A stretch of DNA of 64,000 bases from Flavobacterium tistrianum (GTDB lineage: Bacteria > Bacteroidota > Bacteroidia > Flavobacteriales > Flavobacteriaceae): positions 1-64,000 of the forward strand of contig NZ_QJRH01000067.1 in NCBI RefSeq assembly GCF_003254545.1, written 5' to 3'. Made by a program: the position numbers and the translations under genes. This document shows positions 18,826 through 26,161 of this stretch, in pieces. The number at the start of each line of letters is the position of its first letter. Positions within the stretch are counted from its first letter, which is position 1. The notes below the pieces were generated by a model. That model was not told where the DNA came from. It saw only the letters and a program-made list of their open reading frames with translations, and did not search any database.

Positions 18826-18833
18826 ACTTTTGA
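18826..18833 (+). promoter_or_regulatory. -7 element upstream of the CxxC membrane protein gene
   Basis: TACTTTTG matches TAnnTTTG. It overlaps an alternative TTG start at 18830, which argues for the downstream ATG at 18875 as the real start. Confidence 0.45.
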
Positions 18834-18874
18834 AAGGTAATATAGAAACATTATTAAATTATAAAATATCTTAT

Positions 18875-19369
18875 ATGATTGATAACTACACTTTCAATGA
18901 ATATGAAAAAAGATTTGAACCAAAAGAAACCACATGTGCATATTGCGAAGAATCGCAAATAAAAAACATGAAAGATACTCACTTTGTAGCACTTTATGTT
19001 ACTAACGACCGTACTAATCTTATTGTGTATAGATCCGTAAAATATTCAAAATTATTAATTGGGATTCCAAGATGTGCATCGTGCAAAGAAATTCATGATA
19101 AATATGTGAGTAAATCCAGATTAATAACATGCATGATAGTTCCACTTTTATTGGGACTTTTGTTTTATTATATTTCGACTTTAGGCGTGTTTCTTTTCAT
19201 AGCAGGTTTTTTTTCCATTCTTTTTGGGGGATTTTATGGATCACATAAACTCACTCATTTTTTTGTAGCAAAAGAGAATATTTATAATTTACATGATGGT
19301 ACTGAAAATGATAGATTTATTCAGAATCTAATTTTGGATGGATGGTCTCTAAATCAGCCATCAGCATAA
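18875..19369 (+). CDS. Zinc-ribbon-like membrane protein, unknown function
   Basis: The start is taken as ATG 18875 because the in-frame TTG at 18830 lies inside a probable -7 element; the protein is then 164 residues. Two CxxC pairs (CAYC near residue 15 and CASC near residue 67) could bind one zinc in a cytosolic N-terminal part. Two adjacent hydrophobic segments (about 80-102 and 105-122) form a hairpin in the membrane, followed by a polar tail ending in DGWSLNQPSA. I do not recognise the family. A terminator separates it from the Lgt-like operon, so functional linkage to that unit is uncertain. Confidence 0.6.
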   Translation: MIDNYTFNEYEKRFEPKETTCAYCEESQIKNMKDTHFVALYVTNDRTNLIVYRSVKYSKLLIGIPRCASCKEIHDKYVSKSRLITCMIVPLLLGLLFYYISTLGVFLFIAGFFSILFGGFYGSHKLTHFFVAKENIYNLHDGTENDRFIQNLILDGWSLNQPSA

Positions 19370-19498: not shown

Positions 19499-20242
19499 AT
19501 GAAACTTCCTTTTGAGCCAGTTATTTTTGGTTATGAAATTAATATCCATTTAGTTTTAGAATATGTGGCATTTTTTTTAGGATATAAATATTATGTTTTT
19601 TTGAGAAAAAGAACCAATGATACTATTGTTTCTTCCAACAGATTGTCAATTATATTGGGTGCTGCAATTGGAGCTTTTTTAGGCTCTAGAATTATGGGTT
19701 TTCTGGAAAATCCTATTTTTCATTCTGATGCAAAAGCAATTTTAGACCTTTTCAATGCGAAGACCATTATGGGAGGATTGTTTGGCGGACTTTTGGGTGT
19801 TGAAATTGCAAAGAAAATCATTGGCGAAAAAGAGTCATCAGGTGATTTATTTACTTTTCCGATTATTCTAGGAATTTTTATAGGGAGAATCGGTTGTTTT
19901 TTATCTGGAACTAATGAGTTTACGTATGGAAAAAAAACGACTTTTTTTATGGGAATGAATCTTGGAGATAACGTTATGCGGCATCCAATTGCCTTATACG
20001 AATTACTTTTTCTGATTATTTTGTTTTATGTTTTGAAGAAACTAAAAACAAAAAATCTTAAAAACGGTTTGCTATTTCAATATTTTATGATCGCCTATTT
20101 TGCGTTTCGCTTTTTTGTAGAATTTTTAAAACCAAATTATTTCCTGATTTTTGGAATAAGTTCGATTCAGATTTTATGTTTGATTTGTCTGCTTTATTAT
20201 AACAAAACAATTTTAAATTTATTTGTAAAAAATGCCAGTTAG
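19499..20242 (+). CDS. Divergent Lgt-like (prolipoprotein diacylglyceryl transferase family) membrane protein
   Basis: A 247-residue protein with about seven hydrophobic segments. It keeps Lgt-family landmarks: a GRIGCFLSG motif (R130, the Lgt GRxGNF signature), RHPIALYE (161-168) and FRFFVEFLKP (R204). It departs at residues known to matter in Lgt: the Asn of GRxGNF is Cys133, and the SFHGG loop is replaced by IMGGLFGG, so the His is absent. Lgt transfers diacylglyceryl from phosphatidylglycerol to prolipoprotein Cys; this paralogue may act on a different acceptor or lipid. Its last 11 bases overlap the start of the radical SAM gene, so the two are translationally coupled. Being first in the unit, it sits directly before the Tes-like enzyme. 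Family assignment is fairly sure; activity is unknown. Confidence 0.8.
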   Translation: MKLPFEPVIFGYEINIHLVLEYVAFFLGYKYYVFLRKRTNDTIVSSNRLSIILGAAIGAFLGSRIMGFLENPIFHSDAKAILDLFNAKTIMGGLFGGLLGVEIAKKIIGEKESSGDLFTFPIILGIFIGRIGCFLSGTNEFTYGKKTTFFMGMNLGDNVMRHPIALYELLFLIILFYVLKKLKTKNLKNGLLFQYFMIAYFAFRFFVEFLKPNYFLIFGISSIQILCLICLLYYNKTILNLFVKNAS

Positions 20243-21623
20243 AAAATATACCTATTATGATTTTACATTAAGCCTTTGCCCAGAATGCTTAAAGAGAATT
20301 GATGCCAAAATTGTTTTTGAAGACGAGAATGTCTATATGCTTAAAAGATGTCCAGAACACGGAAGTTCTAAGGTTTTGATTGCCGACGATATTCAATATT
20401 ACAAGAATATCCGAAACTACAATAAACCATCCGAGATGCCGTATACTTTTAATACAAAAACCCATTACGGATGTCCGTACGATTGTGGTTTATGCCCAGA
20501 TCATGAACAGCATTCTTGCCTTACAGTTGTTGAGGTTACAGATCGTTGCAATCTGACGTGTCCAACTTGTTATGCAGGTTCATCACCTAGTTATGGCAGG
20601 CACAGAACTCTCGAAGAAATAAAAGCAATGCTCGATACGGTTGTTAAAAATGAAAAAGAACCAGACGTAGTGCAGATTAGTGGAGGTGAACCAACCATAC
20701 ATCCCGAATTTTTTGAAATTTTGGATTATGCAAAATCAATTCCGATAAAGCATTTGATGCTAAACACAAACGGAATTAAAATTGCAAAAGACAAAGAATT
20801 TGTTCAGCGACTAAAAAGCTATTCTCCAGACTTTGAAATTTATCTTCAATTTGATTCTTTTGAAGATAGTGTATTACAGGAATTGCGCGGAGCCGATTTA
20901 AGCGAAATACGAAAACAAGCTTTAGAAAATCTAAATGAAGTTAATTTATCTACCACTTTGGTTGTTACGCTTCAAAAAGGATTAAACGATCATGAAATAG
21001 GTAAAATTATTGAGTTTGCCTTAAAGCAAAAATGCGTTCGAGGAGTTACATTTCAGCCGACTCAAATTGCTGGCCGATTGGAGAATTTTAACTTAGAAAC
21101 CGATCGAATGACATTAACAGAAGTGAGAAGAAAAATTCTGGAGCAAACCAATGTTTTTAATTCAGATGATTTACTTCCAGTTCCTTGTAATCCCGATGCT
21201 TTAGTTATGGGTTATGCTTTGAAACTAGGAGACGAAGTTTTTCCACTGACACGATATATTAATCCGAACGATTTATTGGACAATAGTAAAAACACAATTA
21301 TTTACGAGCAAGATGAAGTACTTCGTGGCAAAATGATAGACTTGTTTAGTACGGGAAATTCTGTAGAAGTTGCACAGGAAAATCTGAAATCTATATTATG
21401 TTGTCTTCCTAATATTGATGCGCCAGAACTAGGTTATGATAACTTGTTTCGAATTATCATCATGCAGTTTATTGATGCCTATAATTTTGATGTGAGAGCA
21501 ATAAAAAAATCATGCGTGCATATTGTCAATAAGGATAATAAAATAATTCCGTTTGAAACAATGAATTTGTTTTACAGAGATGATAAAATAAAAAGACTAG
21601 AAGAATTAAGAACTAATATATAA
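20232..21623 (+). CDS. Radical SAM protein of the tetraether-lipid-synthase (Tes)-like family
   Basis: A 463-residue protein. The N-terminus has a rubredoxin-like or Zn-knuckle region (C16-x2-C19 and C40-P-E-H43). A second Cys set follows in YGCPYDCGLCPDHEQHSC (C81, C85, C88, C96), then the radical SAM motif C106-x3-C110-x2-C113 (DRCNLTCPTC) and SGGEPT for SAM binding. Further Cys occur late (VPCNPDA, ILCCLPN, KSC), giving sites for auxiliary Fe-S clusters. This order matches the archaeal Tes/MJ0619-type family, which joins lipid tails by C-C bond formation; bacterial members are mostly uncharacterised. It overlaps the Lgt-like gene by 11 bases and is followed after 5 bases by a small membrane-protein gene. 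Inference: it modifies acyl or lipid chains. The exact reaction is not shown by the sequence. Confidence 0.82.
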   Translation: MPVRKYTYYDFTLSLCPECLKRIDAKIVFEDENVYMLKRCPEHGSSKVLIADDIQYYKNIRNYNKPSEMPYTFNTKTHYGCPYDCGLCPDHEQHSCLTVVEVTDRCNLTCPTCYAGSSPSYGRHRTLEEIKAMLDTVVKNEKEPDVVQISGGEPTIHPEFFEILDYAKSIPIKHLMLNTNGIKIAKDKEFVQRLKSYSPDFEIYLQFDSFEDSVLQELRGADLSEIRKQALENLNEVNLSTTLVVTLQKGLNDHEIGKIIEFALKQKCVRGVTFQPTQIAGRLENFNLETDRMTLTEVRRKILEQTNVFNSDDLLPVPCNPDALVMGYALKLGDEVFPLTRYINPNDLLDNSKNTIIYEQDEVLRGKMIDLFSTGNSVEVAQENLKSILCCLPNIDAPELGYDNLFRIIIMQFIDAYNFDVRAIKKSCVHIVNKDNKIIPFETMNLFYRDDKIKRLEELRTNI

Positions 21624-21628
21624 AGCAT

Positions 21629-21826
21629 ATGACAGCACTGGAAGTAGGCAATTTAGGAGGTTTGGTCGCAATTTTTATAGCGATTATGGTGGGGCCGCCA
21701 ATTTTAATGGCAATTACCGGTTTTGCAATAAAGAAAAGCAACCCCAATGGAGCAAAAGTTTGTTTTATTATTGGAGCATTATACTTGCTTATTGGATTAG
21801 GAATATGCGGAACGCTTTTGTCTTAA
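21629..21826 (+). CDS. Small two-helix membrane protein
   Basis: 65 residues with two hydrophobic helices (about 8-31 and 43-63), separated by a short basic, Asn/Pro-containing loop (AIKKSNPNGAK). No family is recognised. It starts 5 bases after the stop of the radical SAM gene and is followed at once by a strong terminator, so it is the third gene of the Lgt-like / radical SAM unit. It could be a membrane anchor or small subunit for the upstream enzymes, but this is inference from position only. Confidence 0.7.
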   Translation: MTALEVGNLGGLVAIFIAIMVGPPILMAITGFAIKKSNPNGAKVCFIIGALYLLIGLGICGTLLS

Positions 21827-21827
21827 G

Positions 21828-21865
21828 AAAAAACCCAAATAAACAGAATTATTTGGGTTTTTTTT
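21828..21865 (+). terminator. Rho-independent terminator of the Lgt-like/radical SAM operon
   Basis: A 15-bp stem (21828-21842 with 21849-21863, core CCCAAATAA / TTATTTGGG) is followed by a long T tract. It may also act for the convergent beta-barrel gene. Confidence 0.92.
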
Positions 21866-24688: not shown

Positions 24689-25390
24689 TTAAAATTCAAA
24701 ATTAAATCCTTTTTCAGTTAATTTTTTGTACATCTGATCATCAAATTTAAAAAGTTTGGCCGCTCTATGCGAAACATCTTTTTGTTTTTCATCTAGCTCT
24801 GTCAGGAGTTTCATGTGAAGAATTTTTCGTCTAAAATTTGATTTGTCCAATTCGATTCCAAGAATTTCTTCATATAAATGCATCAGCTGCAACAAAGTAA
24901 ACTTTTCAGGAAGAAGATTAAATCCTATTGGCGCCTGACGCACACGGTTTCGAAGCTGTGATAAACTGAAATTTAAAATTTCATTATGGTCAAAAATCAG
25001 CTCAGGAATTTCATTGATTTTATACCATTTTGCTTCAATAACACGTAAGCTGGCTTTTATATTATAATCTTCCCGATTGACCAAAGTGTAGTAGCCAATA
25101 GTGACAACACGCCTTTCTGGAACACGTTTCGGGTCTGTAAATGCTTTGAGCTGTTCGAGATAAATATTTTCAAGTCCGGTAAGTTCGTGCAAAATACGCT
25201 GTGCGGCATCATCGGCACTTTCCTCCAGCTGAAGCCATCCGCCAAGAAGTCCCCATTTTCCTTTACTTTCTCCTTGGGCATGCTGAACCAAGAGCACTTC
25301 AAGACTCTCTTTATTAAATCCGAAAAAGACACAATCGATTGTGATTCCGTCCACGGCTGGTTTGTGGTGGTTAGTAGTTATTTCTGCCAA
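24689..25390 (-). CDS. NrtR/AraR-like Nudix-fold transcriptional regulator, degenerate Nudix box (copy 2)
   Basis: 233 residues: an N-terminal Nudix fold (about 15-150) and a C-terminal winged-helix region (about 155-230, with RRKILHMKLLTELDEKQ). The Nudix box G51-x5-E57-x7-R65 continues I66-L67-H68-E69-L70, so two of the three catalytic Glu of REUxEE are hydrophobic; hydrolase activity is unlikely. In Bacteroidota, Nudix-fold regulators of this layout (for example the arabinose regulator AraR of Bacteroides thetaiotaomicron) bind sugars or metabolites. Its C-terminal half is close to the gene just upstream on the same strand, 33 bases away, so the pair is a tandem duplication and probably an operon. 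Divergent from a PUL, so it is the likely regulator of that PUL (inference). Confidence 0.85.
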   Translation of the reverse strand: MAEITTNHHKPAVDGITIDCVFFGFNKESLEVLLVQHAQGESKGKWGLLGGWLQLEESADDAAQRILHELTGLENIYLEQLKAFTDPKRVPERRVVTIGYYTLVNREDYNIKASLRVIEAKWYKINEIPELIFDHNEILNFSLSQLRNRVRQAPIGFNLLPEKFTLLQLMHLYEEILGIELDKSNFRRKILHMKLLTELDEKQKDVSHRAAKLFKFDDQMYKKLTEKGFNFEF

Positions 25391-25423: not shown

Positions 25424-26161
25424 TCAGAATTCAAAATTGAATCCCTTTTCAGTTAATTGCTCATAAATTTCAGGATCAAATTTATATAGCTGAGCAGCTC
25501 TGTGCGAAACGTCTTGTTGTTTTTCGTCTAATGCCACCAAAAGTTTCATGTGCAGAATTTTTCGTCTAAAGTTGGGTTTGTCCATTTCAATTCCTAAAAT
25601 TTCTGCATACAATTGCATGAGTTGCAATAAAGTGAATTTTTCAGGAAGCAGATTAAATCCAATTGGTGCTTGACGAACTCTGCTTCGAAGATGTTTTATG
25701 CTGTACGCCAGAATTTCGTTATGATCATAAATCAAATCTGGAATACTGTCTATTTTATACCATTGTGCATCAGAAGCCGTAAAACCAGCCTTAATATTAT
25801 AATCTTCTCTTTTTACAAGAGCATAATAGCCAATTGTAATTACACGTCTCAGTGGGAAACGATCTGGATCTCCAAACGCTTTCAGTTGTTCCAAATATAT
25901 ATTGTCAAGACCTGTAAGTTCATTCAATAAACGATGAGCGGCATTGTCTGTGCTTTCTTTTTTATAAATCCATCCTCCTGGAAGTCCCCATTTTCCTTTA
26001 CTGATACCTTCAGCATGCTGCACCAAAAGCACTTCAAGACTGCCTTTGTCGAAACCAAAAATGACACAGTCAATCGTGATGGCATTCATCGCGCTGTTTT
26101 CATTTTTCTGAGCAGTTTTGTCTTCTACATTTTCAACCATATGTGAGATAAATTTTGACAA
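25424..26161 (-). CDS. NrtR/AraR-like Nudix-fold transcriptional regulator, degenerate Nudix box (copy 1)
   Basis: 245 residues with the same order as its paralogue: a polar N-terminal extension (~1-25), a Nudix fold and a C-terminal winged helix ending TEKGFNFEF. The Nudix box G63-x5-E69-x7-R77 continues L78-L79-N80-E81-L82, again losing two catalytic Glu, which supports a sensing rather than an enzymatic role. RVRQAPIGFNLLPEKFTLLQLM is nearly identical in both copies. It is first in the two-gene minus-strand unit, and its start faces the susC promoter region across about 600 bases, the usual place for a local PUL regulator. The ligand may be a pentose or a related metabolite (inference). 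Confidence 0.86.
   Translation of the reverse strand: MSKFISHMVENVEDKTAQKNENSAMNAITIDCVIFGFDKGSLEVLLVQHAEGISKGKWGLPGGWIYKKESTDNAAHRLLNELTGLDNIYLEQLKAFGDPDRFPLRRVITIGYYALVKREDYNIKAGFTASDAQWYKIDSIPDLIYDHNEILAYSIKHLRSRVRQAPIGFNLLPEKFTLLQLMQLYAEILGIEMDKPNFRRKILHMKLLVALDEKQQDVSHRAAQLYKFDPEIYEQLTEKGFNFEF

What the first reader, a model, noticed from the sequence alone, without database searches (positions are those of the whole stretch)
19499..21826. Lgt-like transferase coupled to a Tes-like radical SAM enzyme: candidate new lipid-modification system
Seen: three genes on one strand, the first two overlapping by 11 bases, the third 5 bases on, closed by a 15-bp terminator. Gene 1 is an Lgt-family membrane protein that lost the Asn of GRxGNF (Cys133) and the SFHGG His. 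Gene 2 has the Cys layout of the tetraether lipid synthase (Tes) family: an N-terminal zinc or rubredoxin-like site, CxxxCxxC at C81-C88, and radical SAM Cys C106/C110/C113. Gene 3 is a 65-residue two-helix membrane peptide. Known: Lgt moves diacylglyceryl groups; Tes joins lipid tails by C-C bonds in archaea. Inference: together they may build or cross-link a special membrane lipid or lipid-modified product. I know of no described bacterial system with this trio.
Basis: partly seen in the sequence, partly recalled or inferred. Interest (0 to 1): 0.85.

Follow-up and report, generated by a model that had tools for sequence, protein, structure and literature searches.

The report
Lgt-like, Tes-like and cysteine-peptide operon
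A small bacterial operon joins a relative of the enzyme that attaches lipids to proteins, a relative of the enzyme that welds archaeal lipid tails together, and a tiny membrane protein ending in a conserved cysteine; the three travel together in distant bacteria, and what they make is unknown.

Summary
Window 19499-21826 encodes an Lgt-fold membrane protein (g1), a Tes-related radical SAM enzyme (g2) and a 65-residue two-helix peptide (g3). The trio is conserved: in 394 sampled Bacteroidota genomes g2's family scores in 31, all 31 hold g1's subfamily (29 adjacent, 2 on other contigs), and one genome has g1 alone. An Actinomycetota version lies on two Mycobacterium plasmids and in Nonomuraea.

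Operon peptides of different lineages share little but a last helix and a cysteine 1-14 residues from the C-terminus (26 of 26 picked by position), mostly predicted on the periplasmic face, where Lgt works. It is not a lipobox (0 of 113 and 0 of 26).

Neither enzyme is its namesake: g1 lost Lgt's His103 and Asn146 (now an invariant Cys) but keeps Arg143, Glu202, Tyr235 and Arg239; g2 misses the Tes and TrsS cut-offs and has other C-terminal cysteines.

Best guess (0.38): g1 lipidates the peptide's cysteine with a lipid tailored by g2. Function is inferred, not shown. Six searches of the held library found no description.

The parts
19499..20242 (+). g1: Lgt-fold membrane protein, 247 aa, GRxGC subfamily
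   Evidence: Pfam LGT E 3e-24; NCBIfam lgt 59.5 bits, below cut-off 118.9; AlphaFold2 model (pLDDT 72) matches only E. coli Lgt 5AZB at E<=0.001 in the PDB
19895..19897 (+). g1 Cys133 codon, in place of Lgt Asn146
   Evidence: invariant in 11 of 11 divergent members and 32 of 32 close ones; GRxGC also in L127, L130, L131, L147
20232..21623 (+). g2: Tes/TrsS-related radical SAM enzyme, 463 aa
   Evidence: Pfam Radical_SAM E 4e-28 and Zn_ribbon_HMPTM E 8e-21; profile match to Tes 7TOL E 5.5e-95, profile positions 12-456
20277..20360 (+). g2 rubredoxin-type site C16-X2-C19-X20-C40-X2-H43
   Evidence: same spacing as Tes C9X2C12X20C33X2H36 (PMC9433317 passages); Cys invariant in 13 of 13, His in 12 of 13
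20472..20513 (+). g2 N-terminal auxiliary cluster motif C81, C85, C88 with H91/H94
   Evidence: invariant in 13 of 13 Bacteroidota members; absent in the four actinobacterial-type members
20547..20570 (+). g2 radical SAM motif C106-X3-C110-X2-C113
   Evidence: present in all 23 rows
21186..21515 (+). g2 C-terminal cysteines C319, C390, C391, C428 (M411 lies at the place of Tes Met439)
   Evidence: C427 and C442, present in both Tes-type rows, are Ser and Glu here
21629..21826 (+). g3: 65-aa two-helix membrane peptide with near-terminal cysteine
   Evidence: family found in 80 of 80 related loci, 51 with one, 26 with two and 3 with three copies
21806..21808 (+). g3 Cys60 codon (LGICG, 5 residues before the end)
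   Evidence: 113 of 113 similarity-selected members have it
21828..21863 (+). terminator-like inverted repeat, 15-nt arms
   Evidence: not listed by the consensus scan

Best explanation
A three-part membrane modification system. g3 is a small hairpin peptide (N- and C-terminus outside, basic loop inside) whose near-terminal cysteine sits at the outer end of its last helix. g1, an Lgt paralogue that still has the residues binding the diacylglyceryl/phosphate part of phosphatidylglycerol, transfers a glyceryl-lipid to that cysteine. g2, in the cytoplasm, acts on the lipid tails by radical chemistry of the Tes type (C-C coupling of two tail ends, or attachment of sulfur to a tail carbon), so that the peptide ends up carrying, or bridging, an unusual lipid. 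SHOWN: gene content, conserved association, conserved cysteines, folds and metal-site motifs. INFERRED: topology (positive-inside), peptide as substrate, lipid as g2's substrate, order of steps.
For: Association: 31 of 31 g2 genomes have the g1 subfamily, 29 of 31 adjacent, 2 on separate contigs; 1 genome g1-only; 0 g2-only; n=394 (Fisher p 3e-45, which ignores kinship). The two split cases and the shuffled gene orders (peptide between g1 and g2 in L115, L117, L125, L138; g1 downstream of g2 in L121, L122, L135) argue against mere inherited synteny. Peptide: picked by position only, 26 of 26 peptides of divergent lineages have the cysteine 1-14 residues from the end, mostly with Gly or Ser at -2 (21 of 26). 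The last helix is preceded by net positive charge in 24 of the 30 peptides (0 in four, -1 in two), tails are near neutral, so the cysteine is mostly predicted outside, the side on which Lgt modifies its substrates (PMC8689077 passages). g1 keeps Lgt R143, E202, Y235, R239 as R130, E168, Y200, R204, invariant in 11 of 11, residues placed around the lipid donor in Lgt (PMC4728403 and PMC8689077 passages). g2: Tes is the only full-length PDB relative; Tes binds two lipids and gave a sulfur-bearing lipid intermediate (PMC9433317 passages). Control: 0 of 12 loci of other Lgt-type or other g2-like genes have an adjacent small two-helix ORF.
Against: No lipid, peptide or mutant data. g1 lacks His103 (proposed base, essential in E. 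coli) and Asn146, so the Lgt reaction may be lost. The cysteine is not in a lipobox: 0 of 113 and 0 of 26 strict; 1 of 26 if Gly is allowed at -2. g2 is nearer to TrsS (343 bits), of unknown chemistry, than to Tes (306 bits) and lacks two C-terminal cysteines seen in both Tes-type rows. Cytoplasmic g2 and an outside cysteine lie on opposite sides. GRxGC also occurs in Lgt-like proteins without g2 (L134, L139, L140, L144). Six of 106 position-picked small ORFs in the close set lack the cysteine. In G034 (L113, L133) I found no peptide.
Confidence: 0.38

Rival explanations
1. Peptide-maturation (RiPP-like) system: g2 modifies the small peptide itself (for example a crosslink or thioether at the near-terminal cysteine), and g1 is a membrane partner that binds, anchors or lipidates the product.
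For: Tandem, fast-evolving small peptides with one fixed cysteine beside a radical SAM enzyme, 1-3 copies per locus; several radical SAM peptide maturases are weaker structural neighbours (SkfB 6EFN, SuiB 5V1T).
Against: g2 has no SPASM or precursor-recognition domain hit (Pfam lists Radical_SAM, Zn ribbon, Fer4_12 and a sub-threshold hit); no protease or exporter recurs next to it in the loci I read; the cysteine is mostly predicted outside while g2 is cytoplasmic.
Confidence: 0.22
2. Membrane-lipid synthase: g2 joins or alters lipid tails as Tes does, g1 handles the head group of the product, and the peptides are structural helpers; the peptide cysteine is not lipidated.
For: g2's match to Tes, shared rubredoxin and N-terminal cluster motifs, g1's retained lipid-binding residues; bacterial Tes homologues were proposed as lipid couplers, untested (PMC8941075 and PMC11868695 passages).
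Against: Bacteroidota members of the Tes family proper (L145, 494 bits; L146, 442 bits, just under the cut-off) have no Lgt-like gene beside them; the invariant peptide cysteine is unexplained; the C-terminal cluster cysteines differ.
Confidence: 0.2
3. Thiol-redox or metal-handling membrane complex: the cysteines of g1 (Cys133) and of the peptide form a redox or metal site that g2 assembles or modifies; lipids are not substrates.
For: Two invariant cysteines in membrane partners; a DUF4395 membrane protein with conserved cysteines in L121 (Pfam E 4.8e-11) and look-alikes with the same C-terminal cysteine pattern in L122 and L135; the g2-like genes of L126 and L129 lie near CcdA, a disulfide oxidoreductase or peroxiredoxins.
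Against: Extra cysteine proteins occur in only one branch; g1 keeps lipid-binding residues of Lgt.
Confidence: 0.12
4. Genes merely co-inherited by chance or as genomic neighbours, without shared function.
For: Patchy distribution (24 of 296; 25 of 149 in the genus) and probable transfer could carry neighbours along.
Against: Co-occurrence survives separation onto different contigs and changes of gene order, across Bacteroidota and Actinomycetota.
Confidence: 0.03

Closest known systems
Lgt, prolipoprotein diacylglyceryl transferase (PF01790; E. coli 5AZB/5AZC)
   Same: fold (E 1.6e-6), RHPxxLYE, and residues equivalent to R143, E202, Y235, R239
   Different: His103 is Met/Val, Asn146 is Cys, below the curated lgt cut-off (59.5 of 118.9 bits); no lipobox in the partner peptide; the genome has two other Lgt-type genes that keep the His and Asn
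Tes / GDGT-MAS, tetraether lipid synthase (7TOL/7TOM, NF045702)
   Same: full-length alignment, best fold match, rubredoxin and N-terminal cluster motifs, Met at the Met439 place in 11 of 13 rows
   Different: 306 bits against a cut-off of 450; Tyr459 is Ile431; C-terminal cysteines differ; linked to Lgt-like gene and peptide
TrsS, radical SAM (seleno)protein (NF045646)
   Same: best NCBIfam score of g2, 343 bits over residues 12-450
   Different: below its cut-off of 490; function undescribed in the one library paper that names it (a table row). Two g2-like genes that also score best, below cut-off, against TrsS (L126, L129) have a methyltransferase neighbour and no annotated Lgt-like gene
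Radical SAM RiPP maturation systems (SkfB, SuiB and others)
   Same: radical SAM enzyme beside small, variable, often tandem peptides
   Different: peptides are membrane hairpins; no SPASM hit; partner is an Lgt-fold protein

Membership tests
Lgt (prolipoprotein diacylglyceryl transferase) | Pfam LGT domain above gathering score | tested here: met
   86.1 bits against 24.9
Lgt (prolipoprotein diacylglyceryl transferase) | curated equivalog score | tested here: not met
   TIGR00544 59.5 of 118.9; NF000778 43.3 of 334
Lgt (prolipoprotein diacylglyceryl transferase) | His103 of the HGG motif and Asn146 of GRxGN | tested here: not met
   Met91 and Cys133 in the window protein; Cys in 11 of 11, no His at the HGG place
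Lgt (prolipoprotein diacylglyceryl transferase) | lipid-donor residues R143, E202, Y235, R239 | tested here: met
   R130, E168, Y200, R204 invariant in 11 of 11
Lgt (prolipoprotein diacylglyceryl transferase) | substrate with lipobox [LVI][ASTVI][GAS]C | tested here: not met
   for the operon peptides: 0 of 113 and 0 of 26; other substrates not searched
Lgt (prolipoprotein diacylglyceryl transferase) | diacylglyceryl transfer activity | not testable with these tools
   needs biochemistry
Tes tetraether lipid synthase | curated equivalog score | tested here: not met
   NF045702 305.8 of 450
Tes tetraether lipid synthase | CX3CX2C radical SAM, rubredoxin-type CX2CX20CX2H, N-terminal CX3CX2C plus His | tested here: met
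   not kept in the actinobacterial type for the N-terminal cluster
Tes tetraether lipid synthase | C-terminal cluster cysteines and strictly conserved Met439 and Tyr459 | tested here: not met
   Met kept (M411), Tyr459 is Ile431, Cys at 427 and 442 missing; Y459F/L and M439A Tes variants were still active (PMC9433317 passages), so this weighs on membership more than on chemistry
Tes tetraether lipid synthase | fold | tested here: met
   7TOL E 7.4e-29, TM 0.62 (query), from a model of mean pLDDT 62
Tes tetraether lipid synthase | C-C coupling of lipid tails | not testable with these tools
   needs lipid analysis
TrsS radical SAM (seleno)protein | curated equivalog score | tested here: not met
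   NF045646 342.9 of 490
TrsS radical SAM (seleno)protein | genomic context of genuine TrsS | not tested
   no sequence above the TrsS cut-off was fetched; L126 and L129 score 336 and 339 bits
RiPP system with radical SAM/SPASM maturase | SPASM domain in the maturase | tested here: not met
   no SPASM family among the four Pfam hits at E<=1
RiPP system with radical SAM/SPASM maturase | modified precursor peptide | not testable with these tools
   needs mass spectrometry

The most novel reading that the evidence does not exclude
A previously undescribed bacterial protein-lipidation system: hairpin membrane peptides are lipidated at a C-terminal cysteine (a bacterial counterpart in position, not in chemistry, of eukaryotic C-terminal prenylation) by an Lgt paralogue, using a lipid whose tails are coupled or thiolated by a Tes-like radical SAM enzyme, so that a peptide may be tied covalently to a membrane-spanning or cross-linked lipid. 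One branch (L122) even holds an ICMT-type methyltransferase gene in the cluster.
Probability: 0.2. Interest if true: 0.92.

Novelty: categorically new. Interest (0 to 1): 0.74.

Why it matters
The Tes/TrsS-type radical SAM proteins of bacteria have no tested substrate in the papers I saw (PMC8941075 and PMC11868695 passages: lipid role proposed, unconfirmed). This system ties one such clade to an Lgt-fold protein and to a peptide with an obvious, single, testable cysteine, which turns an open question into a mass-spectrometry experiment. If the lipidation reading holds, it would add a C-terminal route to bacterial lipoproteins, hitherto N-terminal at the lipobox cysteine (PMC8689077 passages). 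It would also warn against reading Tes homologues in bacterial genomes as proof of tetraether-type lipids. 'Categorically new' refers to the system as a unit: each part is a divergent member of a known superfamily, each tested family membership failed on a defining feature, and the function is inferred.

Tried and rejected
Rejected: g1 as the housekeeping Lgt (two other Lgt-type genes keep the His and Asn). Rejected: g2 as a genuine Tes or TrsS (scores below cut-off). Rejected: a classical lipobox in g3. Rejected: a defence system (PADLOC gives only weak viperin matches of the shared radical SAM core, E 3e-13). Rejected: Cys133 as unique to this system (GRxGC also in L134, L139, L140, L144). 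Rejected: paralogues of g3 elsewhere in the window's genome (one hit only, itself, at E<=10).

Led nowhere: viral contigs (104 pattern matches, none a relative); papers on TrsS (one paper, a table row); PMC10470005 (only a reference to Tes); PMC8939145 and PMC7641849 (the words occur in unrelated passages). The g2 model is mediocre (mean pLDDT 62), so I drew no metal-site geometry from it.

Weak points of my counts. The bit-score limits (640 and 246) were set after seeing the gaps in the lists; the tool scored at most 4 and 6 candidates per genome, so misses are possible. At my limits the 394 genomes leave out G096, which holds the actinobacterial-type pair (242 and 102 bits), and G066 and G306, which hold Tes-type genes. 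In one search I dropped two of 28 ORFs as spurious: L125 3698-3934 (antisense to a longer ORF, no Cys) and L134 3894-4160 (g1-only locus, Cys present). The control ORFs far from the genes are not rare in cysteine: 12 of 41 have one in the last 15 residues and 6 of 41 the loose motif; two of the 12 are displaced system peptides in L082. The position rule misses real peptides in L131, L135, L130 and L147, which I found by reading; one search's table of 30 was chosen partly with the cysteine in view. Fisher's p ignores kinship.
Full report
OBSERVATION. A perfect 15-nt inverted repeat with a T-run follows, though the consensus scan does not list it. The Cys pattern of g2 and the losses in g1 are as described. 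The nearest named relatives of g2 are Flavobacterium (98-99% identity).

g1. Pfam LGT E 3e-24, but far below the curated lgt scores. Aligned to E. coli Lgt, the equivalents of R143, E202, Y235 and R239 are R130, E168, Y200 and R204, invariant in 11 of 11 divergent members; E243 is E208 (Glu or Asp). His103 is Met or Val and Asn146 is Cys133, also invariant in 11 of 11 and in 32 of 32 close members. Passages of PMC4728403 and PMC8689077 state that H103 mutants fail to complement, that N146A loses all activity, and that R143 and R239 surround the donor lipid. An AlphaFold2 model (pLDDT 72) matches one PDB entry at E<=0.001, Lgt 5AZB. The same genome has two other Lgt-type genes (228 and 202 Pfam bits) that keep the His and the Asn, so g1 is not the housekeeping enzyme.

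g2. In NCBIfam it scores 343 bits with TrsS (cut-off 490) and 306 with Tes (cut-off 450). A 13-row profile aligns to Tes 7TOL along its length (E 5.5e-95), and 7TOL is the best fold match of a mediocre model (pLDDT 62; E 7.4e-29). It has the Tes rubredoxin spacing and N-terminal cluster motif and a Met at the place of Tes Met439 in 11 of 13 rows, but Ile at Tyr459 and a different set of C-terminal cysteines. Bacteroidota also hold Tes-type genes (L145 494 bits; L146 442 bits) without an Lgt-like neighbour. In a 23-row tree the four rows without an Lgt link fall on one side of a branch with support 90/85, i.e. suggestive of one Lgt-linked clade, not proof; several long branches make it unsure.

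CONSERVED ASSOCIATION. All 80 genome-contig loci kept by the tool (80 best of 566; nearly all Flavobacteriaceae) have g1 and g3 relatives; in 78 of 80 the gap g1-g2 is at most 425 bases, in L079 and L074 it is 1.6 and 5.5 kb. In 394 Bacteroidota genomes, g2 at >=640 bits occurs in 31 and g1 at >=246 bits in 32: 31 both, 1 g1-only (G017), 0 g2-only, 362 neither (Fisher p 3e-45, kinship ignored, limits set after seeing the lists). In 29 of 31 the two lie within 1.2 kb on one strand; in G034 and G268 they are on different contigs. Gene order varies: the peptide lies between g1 and g2 in L115, L117, L125, L138, and g1 follows g2 in L121, L122, L135. A diverged form lies in G096, on plasmids of Mycobacterium branderi and M. 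avium and in Nonomuraea gerenzanensis: Lgt-like GRxGC, one or two small membrane proteins, radical SAM. Of ten plasmid-collection records hit with g2, the four that also match g1 carry the pair. Distribution is patchy: 24 of 296 genomes at E<=1e-60, 25 of 149 in the genus, in groups of 95-99%, 79-87% and 68-69% identity to the window, which suggests transfer or repeated loss.

THE PEPTIDE. g3 relatives occur in 80 of 80 related loci, 51 with one, 26 with two, 3 with three copies; 113 of 113 (window included; selected by similarity) have a cysteine 3-10 residues from the end, with Gly at -2 in 112. In other lineages similarity fades, so I picked small ORFs by position only: 28 in 22 loci, 27 with a cysteine in the last 15 residues; two were spurious, leaving 26 of 26. 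Tails differ (LGICGTLLS in the window, IGFSTCVMV in L111, AGICTGLNP in L130) but the cysteine stays. Counting by eye as well, 24 of 26 radical SAM loci of the divergent set (L109-L125, L127, L128, L130, L131, L135-L138, L147) have such a peptide; L113 has none that I found and L123 ends at the contig edge. In the close set, 100 of 106 position-picked small ORFs have the cysteine; of the six without, four stand beside a copy that has it and two (L048, L057) are an extra protein between g1 and g2. Control ORFs far away: 12 of 41 with a cysteine in the last 15, 6 of 41 with the loose motif. Control loci: 0 of 12 (8 other Lgt-type, 4 other g2-like) have an adjacent small two-helix ORF, though the rule is strict and misses three real cases, L131, L135 and L147. 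The stretch before the last helix is net positive in 24 of the 30 peptides (0 in L116_4691, L136_5875 and both of L137; -1 in L111 and L118), so most cysteines are predicted outside. The motif is not a lipobox (0 of 113, 0 of 26): the small residue is at -2, not -1.

MECHANISM. I think the peptide is the substrate and its cysteine the acceptor of a glyceryl-lipid from g1, with g2 tailoring lipid tails (0.38). The retained donor-lipid residues of g1 and the side of the cysteine support the first half; the kinship to Tes supports the second. Against: the lost His103/Asn146, the absent lipobox, g2's closer score to TrsS, its different C-terminal cysteines, and the opposite membrane sides. Rivals are peptide maturation (0.22), a lipid synthase with helper peptides (0.20), a thiol or metal complex (0.12) and chance linkage (0.03); the rest is 'something else'.

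NOVELTY. Searches of the held library gave no description of this combination; preprints and most subscription papers are not held. Zeng et al. (PMC8941075, passages) and the Black Sea study (PMC11868695, passages) mention bacterial Tes homologues as possible brGDGT enzymes, untested; I saw no mention of Lgt or small peptides in those passages.

Noticed in passing
L121, L122, L135 (genomes G121, G156, G362): A DUF4395 membrane protein (Pfam E 4.8e-11 in L121; same C-terminal cysteine pattern in L122 and L135) sits in the cluster; L122 also has an ICMT-type methyltransferase (Pfam E 4.3e-13).
   Followed up: partly
L145 (G066), L146 (G306): Tes-type radical SAM genes (494 and 442 bits against a cut-off of 450) in Bacteroidota genomes without an Lgt-like neighbour: possible bacterial tetraether-type lipid makers.
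   Followed up: partly
L127, L130 (Mycobacterium plasmids), L147 (Nonomuraea): Actinobacterial version of the system with paired peptides ending CTGLNP or CTGINP; the radical SAM protein lacks the N-terminal cluster cysteines.
   Followed up: yes
L082 12173-12361 and 12374-12574: Two peptide copies lie 4.6 kb downstream of a third copy that follows the radical SAM gene, as if the array had been split.
   Followed up: no
L074 1-483 and 4086-4250: g1 match far upstream of g2 plus a short second match, perhaps a displaced or broken gene.
   Followed up: no
L134 (G017), L139, L140, L144: Lgt-like proteins with GRxGC and no radical SAM partner: other Lgt-fold families of unknown function.
   Followed up: partly
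window 18830-19369 (+): 179-aa ORF upstream with two CxxC pairs and hydrophobic segments, no Pfam hit over cut-off; separated from g1 by 129 bases.
   Followed up: no
window 24689-25390 and 25424-26161 (-): Two similar neighbouring ORFs that look like NUDIX-type regulators (by eye, no search).
   Followed up: no
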